Notes: generated by a model from the letters alone, not told the origin. Positions 11,407 through 15,518 are shown, counted from the first letter of the stretch. The stretch is DNA of 64,000 nt from Geoglobus acetivorans (GCF_000789255.1 NZ_CP009552.1:1674001-1738000), one strand, 5' to 3'. Translations and numbers: made by a program.

Positions 11407-12051
11407 TCACAGCAGTTTTGTAAGGTTCCATATCTGATAAATGCCAAACAACACAGTCGGAATCAAAGCACAGATGAAAGCTTTTCTCAGTTCAACCCCT
11501 CGTGCGTGCTTTACTGCGAACGTCCAGATTACCAGTCCCCAGACGGTTACTGCAAGGTTGATTATCAGGTTTGAGTAAACGACATCTCTGGGTATAAATG
11601 AAAGTATTATGTCCCCCACTGCATCGGGATTTTGAAGCTGAGCAAGGTCTATCTTTGGAATCTCTGCGTTCATCAGGTAATATGCCGACACTGGGACTGT
11701 TATCAACGAACCCACCAGCGAAGGTAAGAATCCGTAGCCGATGAACTCGAAAGTCCTCCTGAATGAACCCTTGCCGCCGAAGAATGCCGATAATCCGTGC
11801 ATAACTATCGCCATAATTACCCAGACTGCAAACATTCCAGTAAACGAACCGATTATCCCTATGTATGCTCCAGCTACGAAAAATGTGGCCAGATCTTCAG
11901 GAATTGCCTGTGCAAGCTTTGACATGAGCAAGTACTGATATGCTGAAACCAGGATTGAGAGGGCAGACACCACTGCCAGAGGTCTTTTCAGGTTGATGTC
12001 CCTGTTCTTCAGGTCTTCAAAGAACCTGTCTGGATCTGTAATCAGCCTCAT
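11407..12051 (-). CDS. Yip1-domain membrane protein
   Basis: About 214 residues with five hydrophobic spans. The pattern DRFFEDLKNRDINLKRPLAV at the N-terminus followed by a conserved multi-span core, including a segment with FEFIGYGFLPSL, is typical of prokaryotic YIP1-family proteins. Their role in archaea is unknown. The frame can be extended to 12090, but a TATA box (12074-12085) lies inside that extension and would place transcription start near 12053, so a leaderless ATG at 12051 is more likely. The gene is divergent from the peptide island. Confidence 0.75.
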   Translation of the reverse strand: MRLITDPDRFFEDLKNRDINLKRPLAVVSALSILVSAYQYLLMSKLAQAIPEDLATFFVAGAYIGIIGSFTGMFAVWVIMAIVMHGLSAFFGGKGSFRRTFEFIGYGFLPSLVGSLITVPVSAYYLMNAEIPKIDLAQLQNPDAVGDIILSFIPRDVVYSNLIINLAVTVWGLVIWTFAVKHARGVELRKAFICALIPTVLFGIYQIWNLTKLL

Positions 12052-12090
12052 ATCGCATGGCCACTGCATCAACATATAAATTTTTCTCAT

Positions 12091-12252
12091 TTTGAAGGTT
12101 TAAAAATTTCGAACTGATTCAAAAGTTTTGAACGCACTCAAAATGATTGAAAAGATTTAAGATTTTTGGAGAGTTATATAAAATTTAGAAAAGATAAATT
12201 TATATAACAGAATGTTACGAAATAAGCATTGCCGGAATGGGGGTGGAGAAGG
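12091..12252 (+). promoter_or_regulatory. Promoter region of the peptide island
   Basis: This 162 bp region is very AT-rich and contains two TATA-like elements on the plus strand; the better one, AAATTTATATAAC, is at 12196-12208. From it transcription would start near 12230, leaving a short leader that holds the ribosome binding site GGGTGGAGAAGG before the ATG at 12253. Upstream (12094-12160) are several scattered TTGAA and TTCAAAA words that could be a repeated operator, but they are short and the base composition makes chance likely. Confidence 0.5.
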
Positions 12253-12546
12253 ATGTATGCTGTGAGAAACTGGAATGAAGAAATAGTCAAGTGGTTGGCG
12301 GTTGGAATAGTGTTGGCGATGGCTGGGTTGGTGATGGTGCCTTTGAATGTTGGGGACGTGGGAGCAGTTATTGGGGGATTACAAGCAGGTGTAAGTTCAA
12401 ATAGCTGGGAGCAAGCTGTAGTAAGTGGAGCTTGGAATGGATTTAATGCAGGAGCTGTTGGTGCCGGGGTGTACTTAGGACTGCTTGGACTTGGTGTTGC
12501 AACTGGTGGAACTGCGTTTGCTGTAGGTCTTGGGATAGCTTTATAA
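12253..12546 (+). CDS. Glycine-rich hydrophobic peptide, bacteriocin-like (copy 1)
   Basis: A 97-residue peptide starting MYAVRNWNEEIVKWLAVG, with a good ribosome binding site directly before the ATG. Residues 1-37 form a hydrophobic leader-like part (VLAMAGLVMVPL). The rest is rich in Gly, Ala and Val with few charges, and has spaced glycines (GAWNGFNAGAVGAG, then a tail ending GLGIAL) like membrane-active class II or circular bacteriocins. I found no family match by eye. A paralogue 2.4 kb downstream (14664-14921) keeps the leader region better than the rest, which is common in secreted peptide toxins. Small membrane proteins follow. Function is inferred only from composition and context. 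Confidence 0.6.
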   Translation: MYAVRNWNEEIVKWLAVGIVLAMAGLVMVPLNVGDVGAVIGGLQAGVSSNSWEQAVVSGAWNGFNAGAVGAGVYLGLLGLGVATGGTAFAVGLGIAL

Positions 12547-12589
12547 ATTAAAAATTTTTTATAGGCAATAGCAGCAGTTGAGGTGTTGC

Positions 12590-12847
12590 ATGATGAAAAA
12601 TTTTATTTTCTTTCCGGAATATATGTTATACAAAATCGCTAAAAATCAGAATAAGCATAACCGAGATATCTTGTTTGCGTTGGCTCTGTTATGGGTAATA
12701 CTTAAATTGGGAATTATTTTGGGAGTTATTGTTAATTTCCTGACACCTTACAAATTAACATCTGCAAATCTGACCGGAATAGCCTCTGCAGTTATCATGG
12801 TGATTATATCAACCAACATCGGTCTTAAAAGAGTCTCACGAATATGA
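12590..12847 (+). CDS. Small two-span membrane protein
   Basis: An 85-residue protein with two hydrophobic spans (ILFALALLWVILKLGIILGV and a second near LTGIASAVIMVIISTNIG) and a basic N-terminus. The ATG at 12590 is preceded by GAGGTG; a TTG 12 nt earlier is less likely. I do not recognise a family. It follows the peptide gene by 43 bp and its stop codon overlaps the start of the SpoIIM-like gene (ATGA), so the three are probably one operon. By position and size it could be an immunity or export accessory protein, but this is a guess. Confidence 0.6.
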   Translation: MMKNFIFFPEYMLYKIAKNQNKHNRDILFALALLWVILKLGIILGVIVNFLTPYKLTSANLTGIASAVIMVIISTNIGLKRVSRI

Positions 12848-13412
12848 ACGGAATAAGAGTGACAGTTATAATTTTAGCGTTAATAATTTATATTTCTGGA
12901 TTTCTTATTTCTACTTGCTTTTTTGAATTTAATGAAGTAAGTTTCCAAAGTTGTCGGAATATTCTTTTTTACCTATAAATAAAATAAATATGTTTTTAAT
13001 TTTGTCAAATAATTTAACTATGATAATGACTTTAATTCTTGGCGGTTTCATCTTCGGGATTCCTACCTTTACTAATATTTTTTCGAATGGATACATGTTT
13101 GGGGTCATTTTTGCAGTTTACATAAAAGCCTTTAGAATTGATCAATTTCTGTTGCTGATCTTACCACACGGCATCTTCGAAATTCCGGCAATAATCATAG
13201 CCGGAGCTGCCGGCTTCAAAATCCCATATGAAATTGTAAGGTATTTGGCTGGCAAGAAAGAAACGATTCTAACAAAAGAAGACATAAAAGAATACCTGAC
13301 CTTTGCGTTAATCTCCATAATATTAATCGTAATCGCAGCGTGGATAGAGGCGAACGTAACGCTGAAAATCGCAGAAGCAATGCTGAATTCGACAAATGGT
13401 TTTAATCGATAA
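12844..13412 (+). pseudogene. SpoIIM/DUF95-like membrane protein, frameshifted
   Basis: The start codon at 12844 overlaps the upstream stop (ATGA). The first frame encodes the initial membrane span (MNGIRVTVIILALIIYISGF) and ends at a TAA after about 45 codons. A second frame, entered near 12936, continues with the DUF95 core: FLILSNNLTMIMTLILGGFI, then NGYMFGV and LLPHGIFEIPAIIIAGAAG. Together they make one normal SpoIIM-like protein of about 190 residues, so a one-base shift splits it. DUF95 proteins are standard companions of circular bacteriocins in bacteria and also occur singly in archaea. A sequencing error, a true pseudogene or recoding are all possible. Confidence 0.65.
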
Positions 13413-13607
13413 TACAGTTCTTTCAAACTTTGTGAAAGCAGGTAGATACGACTCACTAAAAAAGCTTTTGGGATTGTTATGTGATGGAGCAGTTTTTGGA
13501 GGGATTCAGATTTTGGTGCTGGGAATGGAGTCGGAAGTTTTCTTTCTTTTACTGCTTTTCTTGTTTGGACTTATAAAGATTGGTTGAAGGTTTGTGGGAT
13601 GTTCTGA
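13396..13607 (+). pseudogene. PIN-domain protein remnant
   Basis: The frame from the ATG at 13396 begins MVLIDNTVLSNFVKAGRYDS, a typical PIN-domain first strand with the catalytic Asp (D5), and then loses similarity. A piece in another frame (about 13510-13607) reads GAGNGVGSFLSF, then TAFLVWTYKDWLKVCG, which may be the decayed C-terminal part. At least two frameshifts would be needed to join them. It overlaps the end of the SpoIIM-like gene by 17 nt and has no visible antitoxin partner. I treat it as a dead toxin-type gene. Confidence 0.5.
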
Positions 13608-13623
13608 GTCTTCCAAATAAATG

Positions 13624-13674
13624 TTGGTGAAATTTAAATTTTTCTATTTAAAAAGTAGAAAACTTTTTCACCAA
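13624..13674. repeat. Long imperfect inverted repeat
   Basis: The outer arms TTGGTGAAA and TTTCACCAA are complementary over 9 bp, and inner segments TTTTTCTA and TAGAAAA pair as well, giving a 51 nt hairpin-forming element. It lies between the PIN remnant and the regulator gene, about 58 bp before the latter's start. It could be a terminator for the upstream operon, an operator for the FilR1-type regulator, or the trace of a mobile element end. The AT-rich inner arms weaken the terminator reading. Confidence 0.5.
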
Positions 13675-13731
13675 TCCAGCATCTTTGAACAACAATAAAA
13701 TATAAATTCTGCAGACAGTTTTTACCGAAAG

Positions 13732-14493
13732 ATGATGTGTTCAGAGGTCTCCAGGATTCTCGATTTCGCAGCAAATGATAGAGTGTTGGAGATTCTCGAA
13801 GCGATTGAGAGGGAGGAAATTTCGGACCTGAAAAAATGCTACCCGAGATCGACTTTACACTACACAATTCAGAAGCTGAAAAGAGCAAATCTGATTGAAA
13901 GGAGAATACATAGGTACGAACTCACCCAACTGGGCATAACGTACCTGAAAATGATTAGAAAATTTCACAGATGTCTTGACAGATTCCACAACCTTATGGA
14001 CAAATTTCCCGATCACAGAATAGAACTTCCAGAGGACTTCGTTCTCAGGTTGGACGAACTTGGTGAATTTGATGTTGTGGAATCGCAAAATACGGATGTT
14101 CTGAGGCCCCACAGGATTGTATTGGGCCAGATCCTGCGCTCGAAGGAGGTAAGGGGGATAGTCCCCATACTCTATCCAGATTATCCTACTGTCTTCAGGG
14201 AGGTCGTAAGTAAGGTTGACCTTCTTGAGATCATCGTAACGGAAGATGTGTGGAAGCTTGTGGAAAAGTATGACCATGTCGAAGAACATACCGGCAAATT
14301 TCGCGTGTATCTGGCTGATAAACATCCATGTATATCTCTCATAGTCACAGACACTTTCTTTTCGGCCGGATTTTATCGGAGATCGGGAGACTTCGATTTC
14401 TGGAGGCTGTTGATTTCAAATGACAAATCAGCGACCAGATTTGGAAGGGACCTGTTTGAGCATTACAGGCGCATATCCCAGAGGGTGCTTTAA
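13732..14493 (+). CDS. Winged-helix regulator with FilR1/DUF1724 domain
   Basis: A 253-residue protein. The N-terminal winged helix (about residues 15-80) reads LKKCYPRSTLHYTIQKLKRA and continues with a wing and LTQLGITYL. The C-terminal part (about 110-250) has the pattern of the FilR1/DUF1724 sensor domain found in methanogen and Archaeoglobus regulators, ending with a segment that includes DKSATRFGRDLFEHYR. These proteins are transcription regulators of mostly unknown ligand. Its promoter TATA (AAAATATAAATT, about 13695-13706) is clear. Lying between the two peptide loci, it is a natural candidate for their regulator, which is an inference from position. Confidence 0.85.
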   Translation: MMCSEVSRILDFAANDRVLEILEAIEREEISDLKKCYPRSTLHYTIQKLKRANLIERRIHRYELTQLGITYLKMIRKFHRCLDRFHNLMDKFPDHRIELPEDFVLRLDELGEFDVVESQNTDVLRPHRIVLGQILRSKEVRGIVPILYPDYPTVFREVVSKVDLLEIIVTEDVWKLVEKYDHVEEHTGKFRVYLADKHPCISLIVTDTFFSAGFYRRSGDFDFWRLLISNDKSATRFGRDLFEHYRRISQRVL

Positions 14494-14663
14494 CCGGTTC
14501 AATATTTCTGGGCAAGTTCAGAATCATAGAAGAAATCTGAATTAATTTAATAAAAGAAAAAAACACATATATTGCAATTACAGAGCATAGGTAGATTAAA
14601 TTAAGGAAGCAGGCAGGACGTATGCTGTGAAGAACTGGAACGGGAAAGTAATATGGCGGATGG
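14494..14663 (+). promoter_or_regulatory. Promoter and broken leader of peptide copy 2
   Basis: AT-rich sequence with a TATA-like CACATATATTG near 14566-14576 precedes a block at 14621-14640 that matches 18 of 20 bases of the copy-1 leader-coding sequence (12256-12275). In copy 2 the ATG position is ACG (14618-14620), and the frame (YAVKNWNGKVI) is shifted by one base relative to the downstream peptide frame. The leader start is therefore lost or needs an unusual initiation. Confidence 0.5.
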
Positions 14664-14921
14664 ATGTTTGGGGTGGTTCTGGCGATGGTCGGGTTAGCAA
14701 TAACGCCACTGACAACCTCTGATGCGGGGATTGCACTTGCTGTGTATGGATACAGAAATGGCGATCTTCCGTCATTGACAGGTGGGCTTGCAACAGTAGG
14801 ATCTGGTGTTGCTGGACTTGGTGCAGGAATTGTAGCGGTCGCTGGTATGGAATCTCTTTCCACACTTGCACTGGCAGGATGTGCAGTCACCGGTGTAGGT
14901 CTTGGGATTGTAATTGGCTGA
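14664..14921 (+). CDS. Glycine-rich hydrophobic peptide, bacteriocin-like (copy 2, damaged leader)
   Basis: An 85-residue frame beginning MFGVVLAMVGLAITPLTTSD, which aligns with copy 1 from its residue 16 onward (GIVLAMAGLVMVPLNVGD). The remainder is again Gly/Ala/Val-rich with spaced glycines and ends in TGVGLGIVIG, but differs much from copy 1. The upstream YAVxNWN motif is present in another frame (see 14494-14663), so the N-terminus has been disrupted by a one-base change and loss of the ATG. It may be a pseudogene or be made as a shorter product from the ATG at 14664; no convincing ribosome binding site precedes that ATG. It is followed by two small membrane protein genes, echoing copy 1. 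Confidence 0.5.
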   Translation: MFGVVLAMVGLAITPLTTSDAGIALAVYGYRNGDLPSLTGGLATVGSGVAGLGAGIVAVAGMESLSTLALAGCAVTGVGLGIVIG

Positions 14922-14944
14922 AAAGAGGAGGTGACAGATCATCT

Positions 14945-15175
14945 ATGCTATTTTTTATTTATGCCTTAATTGTGCTGACATTCATTCTGGCATTCTGGAA
15001 TCTTTCTGAGATAATTAAAACAAGGTCGAAACAGTCAGTACTGTTGATGGGAACTCTATTGGGATCTTCTGTTGCTTCTATGATGCATCTTGCAGGAGTC
15101 AGTGATTTCCTTCTGGTCACCGTTGCGATTGGTACGGGCATTTTTGGAATTGGGACTGTGTTGATGAGGTTTTGA
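14945..15175 (+). CDS. Small multi-span membrane protein
   Basis: A 76-residue protein, almost entirely hydrophobic: one span near the N-terminus (FFIYALIVLTFILAFW), then LLMGTLLGSSVASMMHLAG and a last span ending in FGIGTVLMRF. The ribosome binding site GAGGAGGTGA lies 10 nt before the ATG, which makes translation likely. It starts 23 nt after peptide copy 2 and is probably co-transcribed with it. No family is recognised. As for the equivalent gene behind copy 1, an immunity or secretion role is a hypothesis only. Confidence 0.6.
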   Translation: MLFFIYALIVLTFILAFWNLSEIIKTRSKQSVLLMGTLLGSSVASMMHLAGVSDFLLVTVAIGTGIFGIGTVLMRF

Positions 15176-15248
15176 GGATGGGGGTAGAGCCTTGGTTAGA
15201 TTATCCAAAAATTTAACATGTTTTCCATATTTTTTGCTTGAGAGGGGT

Positions 15249-15518
15249 ATGAAGCGAAAGATCATGCTCAGACTGGGTGGTCTCAGTTACGCTTGCCGCT
15301 ATTTATGCATAATCGCAAAAGTTAGGGGATATGGAACGCTCAAAGCTTTTGCAAGTGGTACAGCTGCGTTTATTGCCTGTTACGTAATGCTCATGCCAAA
15401 GCCAGTGAAAGAAGCCAGCGGCCAGTACAGGAAGGACTCAATATTCTCCAAACCCGGTATTGTTGAAATCATTCTGTTTGTCGGGTTGATCTCTATGCTA
15501 CTGGGGCTGATAGTTTGA
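15249..15518 (+). CDS. Small membrane protein of unknown function
   Basis: An 89-residue protein with a basic N-terminus (MKRKIMLRLGG) and two to three hydrophobic stretches, the last being IVEIILFVGLISMLLGLIV. The ATG at 15249 follows GAGAGGGG closely; a TTG at 15192 behind GGGGG is an alternative that would add 19 residues. No family is recognised. It closes the accessory island; beyond it, at 15651, ordinary housekeeping genes resume. Confidence 0.5.
   Translation: MKRKIMLRLGGLSYACRYLCIIAKVRGYGTLKAFASGTAAFIACYVMLMPKPVKEASGQYRKDSIFSKPGIVEIILFVGLISMLLGLIV

What the first reader, a model, noticed from the sequence alone, without database searches (positions are those of the whole stretch)
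12091..15518. Candidate archaeal bacteriocin-like peptide island with two paralogous glycine-rich peptides
Two paralogous small hydrophobic peptides (12253-12546 and 14664-14921) each lead a run of small membrane proteins, with a SpoIIM/DUF95-like protein, a PIN remnant and a FilR1-type regulator between them. The peptides share a leader-like part (YAVxNWN..., VLAMxGL...PL...D) and differ more in the glycine-spaced remainder, a pattern common in secreted peptide toxins. DUF95 proteins accompany circular bacteriocins in bacteria. No ABC exporter is seen, and function is inferred from composition and context only.
Basis: partly seen in the sequence, partly recalled or inferred. Interest (0 to 1): 0.72.

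Follow-up and report, generated by a model that had tools for sequence, protein, structure and literature searches.

The report
Swappable archaeal bacteriocin-like peptide cassettes
This is a damaged copy of a widespread gene cassette of heat-loving archaea that most likely makes a secreted membrane-attacking peptide plus a matching protector; the peptide's variable part and its partner gene are traded between species behind a fixed leader, much as bacteria trade bacteriocins.

Summary
Peptide A (12253-12546) is intact. Peptide B is dead: ACG replaces its ATG, and leader and core lie in different frames. The window's SpoIIM is also frame-split.

Relatives show a recurrent cassette in Archaeoglobi and Thermococcales: promoter and constant leader, hypervariable 56-77-aa hydrophobic acidic core, small basic membrane protein, SpoIIM with variable N-half and near-invariant C-half; in Archaeoglobi often a divergent Yip1 gene. 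The leader precedes 29 of 31 near-full-length cassette SpoIIMs.

Same-genome cassettes align only at the two ends. Across genomes, homologous partner proteins always came with homologous cores (10/10; base rate 20/390), independent of leader. Core B and ORF 14945-15175 both match one cassette of another genus.

A top bacterial match to this SpoIIM sits in a genuine circular-bacteriocin cluster with a YknW/Yip1 protein.

Best explanation: a polymorphic bacteriocin-immunity cassette working like SpoIIM-dependent circular bacteriocins. Membership is unproven: no core matches a bacteriocin family and ABC exporters are generally absent. Toxicity, immunity, export and cyclisation are inferred. SpoIIM/Yip1 cassettes were reported in 2014-2015; leader-core peptide, pairing and chimeric SpoIIM appear new, but one key 2019 paper could not be read.

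The parts
11407..12090 (-). Divergent Yip1-family membrane protein; recurrent neighbour of these cassettes in Archaeoglobi, one per locus
   Evidence: Pfam Yip1 E 1e-27; only NCBIfam match is YknW family, E 1.9e-8, 34 bits, below its 110-bit cut-off; recurs divergently upstream of leaders
12253..12546 (+). Peptide A precursor, 97 aa, intact: leader about residues 1-31, core about 32-97 (boundary set by conservation, not by a known cleavage site)
12253..12345 (+). Constant leader of peptide A (MYAVRNWNEEIVKWLAVGIVLAMAGLVMVPL), signal-anchor-like
   Evidence: Leader profile 62 bits; 78% identical DNA to another cassette of the same genome over 12252-12338
12590..12847 (+). Middle protein A, small basic membrane protein; candidate immunity protein for core A
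   Evidence: Homologues in L031 and L038 only, next to homologous cores; computed pI 10.2
12844..13412 (+). SpoIIM/DUF95 protein, split between two frames near a run of six T; variable N-half, near-invariant C-half
   Evidence: Pfam E 8e-30
13161..13403 (+). Constant right end of the cassette (SpoIIM 3' part)
   Evidence: 78% identical DNA to another cassette of the same genome, no similarity between this block and the leader block
13732..14493 (+). FilR1-type regulator, belongs with cassette B: in G006 the same gene sits upstream of the orthologous cassette
   Evidence: Pfam FilR1_middle E 2e-22; window 13632-14714 is 81.5% identical to L036 17625-18710
14618..14921 (+). Peptide B pseudogene: ATG is ACG, leader and core in different frames; core most like L134
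14945..15175 (+). Middle protein B1, small membrane protein; candidate partner of core B
   Evidence: Matches the middle protein of L134 (z 15.2) and no other cassette (next best z 3.2)
15249..15518 (+). Middle protein B2, relic of the earlier cassette B; no SpoIIM follows
   Evidence: Matches middle protein of L036 cassette b (z 52.5) and no other; ORF

Best explanation
The locus holds two partly decayed copies of a polymorphic bacteriocin-immunity cassette of hyperthermophilic archaea. A constant hydrophobic leader (signal-anchor-like) takes the precursor to the membrane and is removed. The hypervariable, glycine-rich, mostly acidic core of about 60 residues is released and harms membranes of close relatives. 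The small basic membrane protein encoded next protects the producer from its own core type. SpoIIM, with Yip1/YknW where present, handles maturation or export: its near-invariant C-half works with common machinery, its variable N-half faces the cognate core. New specificities arise when core plus partner is exchanged by recombination between the two constant ends. Shown by sequence: constant ends, variable middle, core-partner pairing, selection on the SpoIIM C-half, recent homogenisation of ends within genomes, cassette loss in a sister species. Inferred: toxicity, immunity, leader removal, export role. The SpoIIM N-half following the core is only weakly supported across genera.
For: Leader upstream of 29 of 31 near-full-length cassette SpoIIMs and of none of the stand-alone ones. 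Mean similarity leader .53, core .15, middle protein .08, SpoIIM N-half .18, C-half .83; stand-alone SpoIIMs .42/.53. Same-genome cassettes align essentially only at promoter+leader and SpoIIM 3' end; third-position identity of the SpoIIM C-half up to 1.00 within a genome.48 between genera. Homologous middle protein implies homologous core: 10/10 against 20/390, 11/12 against 21/190 in Thermococcales. Window core B and ORF 14945-15175 both match L134. H. acidiproducens circular-bacteriocin cluster shares SpoIIM subtype and YknW. Cores are acidic and hydrophobic, middle proteins small and basic, as in group ii circular-bacteriocin clusters (PMC6131525). Both peptides are lost in a sister species.
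Against: No measured activity. No core matches a bacteriocin family. ABC exporter genes, usual in circular-bacteriocin clusters, are generally absent nearby (an imperfect motif scan). The homologous pairs fall into about six independent types, so the p values overstate the evidence. Ten cross-genus pairs with similar cores have unrelated middle proteins. SpoIIM N-half link to the core is weak across genera (.26 against .17, p .07). Yip1 was not detected in the Thermococcales loci with the Archaeoglobi profile. Structure models are of low confidence.
Confidence: 0.68

Rival explanations
1. A peptide signalling (pheromone) system: the core is a strain-specific signal and the small membrane protein its matched receptor or part of one.
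For: A variable peptide paired with a matched membrane protein also fits ligand and receptor; a regulator gene sits beside one cassette type.
Against: The middle proteins are short membrane proteins with no signalling domain found; the FilR1 gene is tied to one cassette type only as far as seen; hydrophobic glycine-rich 60-residue cores and SpoIIM/YknW partners resemble bacteriocin clusters more.
Confidence: 0.1
2. An intracellular membrane toxin with its antitoxin (toxin-antitoxin or suicide defence against viruses), not a secreted weapon.
For: VapBC/HicB-like genes often follow the cassettes; Makarova 2014 proposed membrane-associated defence for SpoIIM cassettes (PMC4158269).
Against: A conserved leader separate from a variable core and a dedicated SpoIIM point to maturation or export; PADLOC finds no defence family in the peptides, middle proteins, SpoIIM or Yip1.
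Confidence: 0.1
3. A membrane-remodelling or vesicle-forming complex in which the peptide is an ordinary small subunit (reading of Makarova et al. 2015).
For: SpoIIM and Yip1 families are linked to membrane remodelling or vesicle formation elsewhere (PMC5898192).
Against: An ordinary subunit would not be constant in one part and hypervariable in another, paired type-by-type with a small protein, and lost from a sister species.
Confidence: 0.08
4. Chance or annotation artefact: unrelated small hydrophobic ORFs near a SpoIIM gene.
For: Low-complexity hydrophobic ORFs are easily over-read; window copies are partly broken.
Against: Same order, leader and spacing in many genomes of two archaeal classes.
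Confidence: 0.01

Closest known systems
Circular (head-to-tail cyclised) bacteriocin clusters, especially group ii (gassericin A, acidocin B, plantaricyclin A)
   Same: Leader plus hydrophobic core of about 60 aa, SpoIIM/DUF95 gene, small cationic hydrophobic partner, often a Yip1 gene; acidic core and long leader as in group ii (PMC6131525; PMC8659200)
   Different: No match to PF09221 or TIGR03651, no ABC exporter nearby as a rule, leader constant across otherwise unrelated cores, SpoIIM half exchanged; cyclisation unknown
arCOG01996 (SpoIIM) + arCOG02054 (Yip1) + small membrane protein cassettes, Makarova et al. 2014 and 2015
   Same: Same gene families, same lineages (Archaeoglobi, Thermococci), described as variable membrane-associated systems (PMC4158269, PMC5898192)
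   Different: In the text I could read there is no leader-core peptide, no core-partner pairing and no SpoIIM half-and-half mosaic; function proposed there is defence, secretion or membrane remodelling
Pneumococcal blp bacteriocin immunity region and polymorphic toxin systems
   Same: Shared leader or trafficking part, variable effector part and matched immunity genes, diversified by recombination (papers located, PMC4860687 and PMC3482391; detail from general knowledge)
   Different: Different leader type (double glycine, ABC peptidase exporter) or large modular proteins; no SpoIIM
VARTIG modules of Thermococcales
   Same: Archaeal hypervariable module diversified by recombination, function unknown (PMC8416519)
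   Different: Large Ig-domain proteins, no short precursor peptide; SpoIIM and Yip1 are not mentioned in that paper
YknWXYZ / SDP of Bacillus subtilis
   Same: YknW-family (Yip1) membrane protein linked to protection from a Sec-exported killing peptide (PMC5985334)
   Different: Needs the YknXYZ ABC transporter; no SpoIIM; the role of YknW itself is unclear

Membership tests
Circular bacteriocin cluster | Precursor with N-terminal leader and hydrophobic core of about 58-70 aa | tested here: met
   31-aa leader, cores 56-77 aa; leader/core boundary inferred from conservation only
Circular bacteriocin cluster | SpoIIM/DUF95 gene in the cluster | tested here: met
   frame-split in the window, intact in most relatives
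Circular bacteriocin cluster | Small, cationic, hydrophobic dedicated immunity protein | tested here: inconclusive
   A gene of that character is there (median pI 9.6) and pairs with the core, but immunity was not tested
Circular bacteriocin cluster | ABC transporter or ATPase in the cluster | tested here: not met
   None near the window cassette; motif scan found ABC ATPases in only 2 of 23 Archaeoglobi-type loci and in none of 18 Thermococcales loci; the motif is not exhaustive
Circular bacteriocin cluster | Sequence match of the precursor to a circular bacteriocin family | tested here: not met
   No PF09221/TIGR03651 match in 20 peptides; positive control L091 matches both
Circular bacteriocin cluster | Head-to-tail peptide bond and antimicrobial activity | not testable with these tools
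   Needs mass spectrometry and inhibition assays
SpoIIM/Yip1 cassettes of Makarova 2014/2015 | SpoIIM-family and Yip1-family genes with small divergent membrane proteins | tested here: met
   arCOG numbers themselves were not assigned here
Polymorphic toxin-immunity system (in the broad sense) | Constant trafficking part, variable effector part, matched neighbouring gene, exchange by recombination | tested here: met
   toxic and immune functions themselves not tested

The most novel reading that the evidence does not exclude
These are the first archaeal SpoIIM-dependent (possibly cyclic) bacteriocins, and core, immunity gene and the N-half of SpoIIM move as one recombination unit between constant ends; the SpoIIM N-half is then the part that recognises the cognate peptide, which would explain what DUF95 does in circular-bacteriocin production.
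Probability: 0.25. Interest if true: 0.87.

Novelty: new variant of a known kind. Interest (0 to 1): 0.72.

Why it matters
Few archaeal peptide antimicrobials are known outside haloarchaea and Sulfolobales (general knowledge). A family with dozens of cores, fixed leaders and matched partners would open competition among hyperthermophiles to study, and the pairing lets each candidate immunity gene be tested directly. What SpoIIM/DUF95 does in circular-bacteriocin production is an open question (PMC6131525); natural SpoIIM mosaics with a variable and a constant half give a handle on it. Core types shared between Archaeoglobi and Thermococcales would also show peptide weapons crossing archaeal classes.

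Tried and rejected
Known-family searches of the peptides (Pfam, NCBIfam, PADLOC, PDB sequences) gave no usable match. Structure prediction was too poor for a fold search, so none was run. Viral contigs gave no relative and plasmids one partial SpoIIM hit, so the cassette is not obviously virus- or plasmid-borne. A first codon-position script had an off-by-one error on minus-strand loci; one search replaces it. The idea that C-half conservation is ordinary for SpoIIM was rejected by a control; the idea that it reflects only recent transfer was rejected by third-position divergence between genera. The Mantel correlation of core with SpoIIM N-half rests largely on close pairs; across genera it is weak. 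Surplus of SpoIIM C-end fragments in genomes was not used as evidence because the search favours that end. Rfam and tRNA scans found nothing in the cassette. Makarova et al. 2019 (mBio 10:e00715-19), the likeliest place for a prior description, is not held.

Full report
What is in the window. The host genome is one contig of 1,860,815 bp. A same-genus genome has a contig of 1,770,093 bp, the published size of Geoglobus ahangari 234 (PMC4600277), so the window is from a Geoglobus-type archaeon (species not proven here). Peptide A (12253-12546) is an intact 97-codon gene with the leader MYAVRNWNEEIVKWLAVGIVLAMAGL. It is followed by a small basic membrane protein and by SpoIIM (Pfam E 8e-30), which is split between two frames near a run of six T. 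Peptide B is dead: ACG replaces the leader's ATG, and leader and core are in different frames. No SpoIIM follows it. A divergent Yip1-family gene lies upstream of A; its only NCBIfam match, a weak one, is the YknW family.

The recurring unit. Searching relatives gave related peptides in 11 of 60 genomes and SpoIIM matches in most. With a leader profile, 29 of 31 near-full-length cassette-type SpoIIMs have a leader within 1.6 kb upstream on the same strand; the stand-alone SpoIIMs examined have none. The profile was trained on part of this set, so only the remainder is independent. Thermococcus loci show the same order with a different constant leader, MWRKALVLGLVLMAIGMVVGGAVE; about a fifth of the 81 sampled genomes of that family carry cassette-type SpoIIMs (counted by score). 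An unclassified archaeon (L094) has a third leader.

Constant ends, variable middle. Mean normalised similarity over 29 cassettes is .53 for leader.15 for core.08 for the middle protein.18 for the SpoIIM N-half and .83 for its C-half. Stand-alone SpoIIMs of the same class give .42 and .53 for the two halves, so the contrast belongs to cassettes. By blastn, cassettes of one genome align essentially only over promoter plus leader and over the 3' part of SpoIIM (about 75-99% identity), with nothing between. Third-position identity in the C-half averages .48 between genera, so it is held by selection on the protein; but within genomes it reaches 1.00 between cassettes with unrelated middles, which points to recent recombination or conversion at the ends. 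The window's own copies (.41-.52 against the other cassettes of the genome) show no such recent event.

Core and partner travel together. Scoring homology against shuffled sequences, ten pairs of cassettes from different genomes have homologous middle proteins, and all ten have homologous cores (base rate 20 of 390); between genera six of six (base 16 of 319). These pairs fall into about six types, so the Fisher values overstate independence. Thermococcales repeat the result, 11 of 12 against 21 of 190, and the single Archaeoglobi-Thermococcales pair with homologous middle proteins, out of 580, is also the pair with the most similar cores. Leaders do not follow cores across genera (.47 against .48). 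The SpoIIM N-half follows the core among close cassettes; across genera the trend is weak (.26 against .17, p .07). The window gave an out-of-sample test: core B, not used to build the rule, has its best match in one cassette, L134 of another genus (z 25.6), and the ORF after it (14945-15175) matches L134's middle protein and no other (z 15.2). The next ORF (15249-15518) matches cassette b of the genome taken as G. ahangari (z 52.5), whose regulator and leader region is also 81% identical to the window's. The simplest reading is that a foreign core-partner pair entered behind a local leader and left the old partner as a relic.

Turnover. Genome G001, about 88% identical around the locus, lacks window 11731-13178 and 13542-15141, that is both peptides, but keeps pieces of Yip1 and SpoIIM. 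That points to loss in G001 rather than gain in the window's genome.

Link to bacteriocins. Circular-bacteriocin clusters hold a precursor, SpoIIM/DUF95, a small cationic hydrophobic immunity protein and an ABC transporter, and often Yip1; group ii peptides are acidic and hydrophobic with long leaders (PMC6131525; PMC8659200; PMC8534725). Loss of the DUF95 gene in leucocyclicin Q left mature cyclic peptide inside cells (PMC6131525), which is why I place SpoIIM in export. Archaeal cores have a median computed pI of 4.1 and middle proteins 9.6. Apart from one MAG locus with ABC transporter genes (L080), the bacterial SpoIIM that scores best against the archaeal profile is that of Heyndrickxia acidiproducens L091, whose cluster holds a TIGR03651/PF09221 precursor and a YknW-family protein. 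That genome has two SpoIIMs by Pfam; the archaeal profile reports the bacteriocin one and, at E 1e-6, not the other, which Pfam scores higher. This is one genome. YknW acts with a transporter that protects Bacillus subtilis from the SDP killing peptide, but its own role is unclear (PMC5985334).

Limits and novelty. No core matches a bacteriocin family, an imperfect motif scan found ABC ATPases in only two of 23 Archaeoglobi-type loci, models of two peptides have low confidence, and no activity is known. So it works like, but is not shown to be, a circular bacteriocin system. SpoIIM/Yip1/small-protein cassettes were already reported as possible defence or membrane-remodelling systems (PMC4158269, PMC5898192). 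What I did not find reported is the leader-core peptide, its pairing with the middle protein, and the mosaic SpoIIM, with the caveat that Makarova et al. 2019 was not available.

Noticed in passing
L007 8241-8810 and L150 near 6137: The last 57 codons of cassette SpoIIM lie at the end of an otherwise unrelated frame of about 190 codons, in the window's genome and in a related one.
   Followed up: no
L007 8835-9484, L031 9860-10496, L033 8525-8994, L034 8140-8786, L139 6142-6369: Antitoxin-like (AF2212/HicB-like) and PIN-like toxin genes often follow the SpoIIM gene directly; link to the cassette or mere hot spot is open.
   Followed up: no
L058, L062, L119: Contigs filed under Arcobacter, Desulfurellaceae and Thermoproteota MAGs carry Archaeoglobi-type leaders and cassette SpoIIMs; probably misbinned contigs.
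   Followed up: no
L080 2757-9543: A MAG filed as Actinomycetes has a SpoIIM with 124 bits to the archaeal profile between ABC transporter genes, with a Yip1-like fragment upstream; no precursor peptide recognised.
   Followed up: partly
L194 3140-12765: A Thermococcales genome carries a tandem array of cassettes (at least four SpoIIMs and five leaders within 10 kb).
   Followed up: partly
L094 4642-7838: An unclassified archaeon has two peptides with the same long N-terminal region (374 nt, 85% identical) and different cores, one before a frame-split SpoIIM, with HicAB-like genes between.
   Followed up: partly
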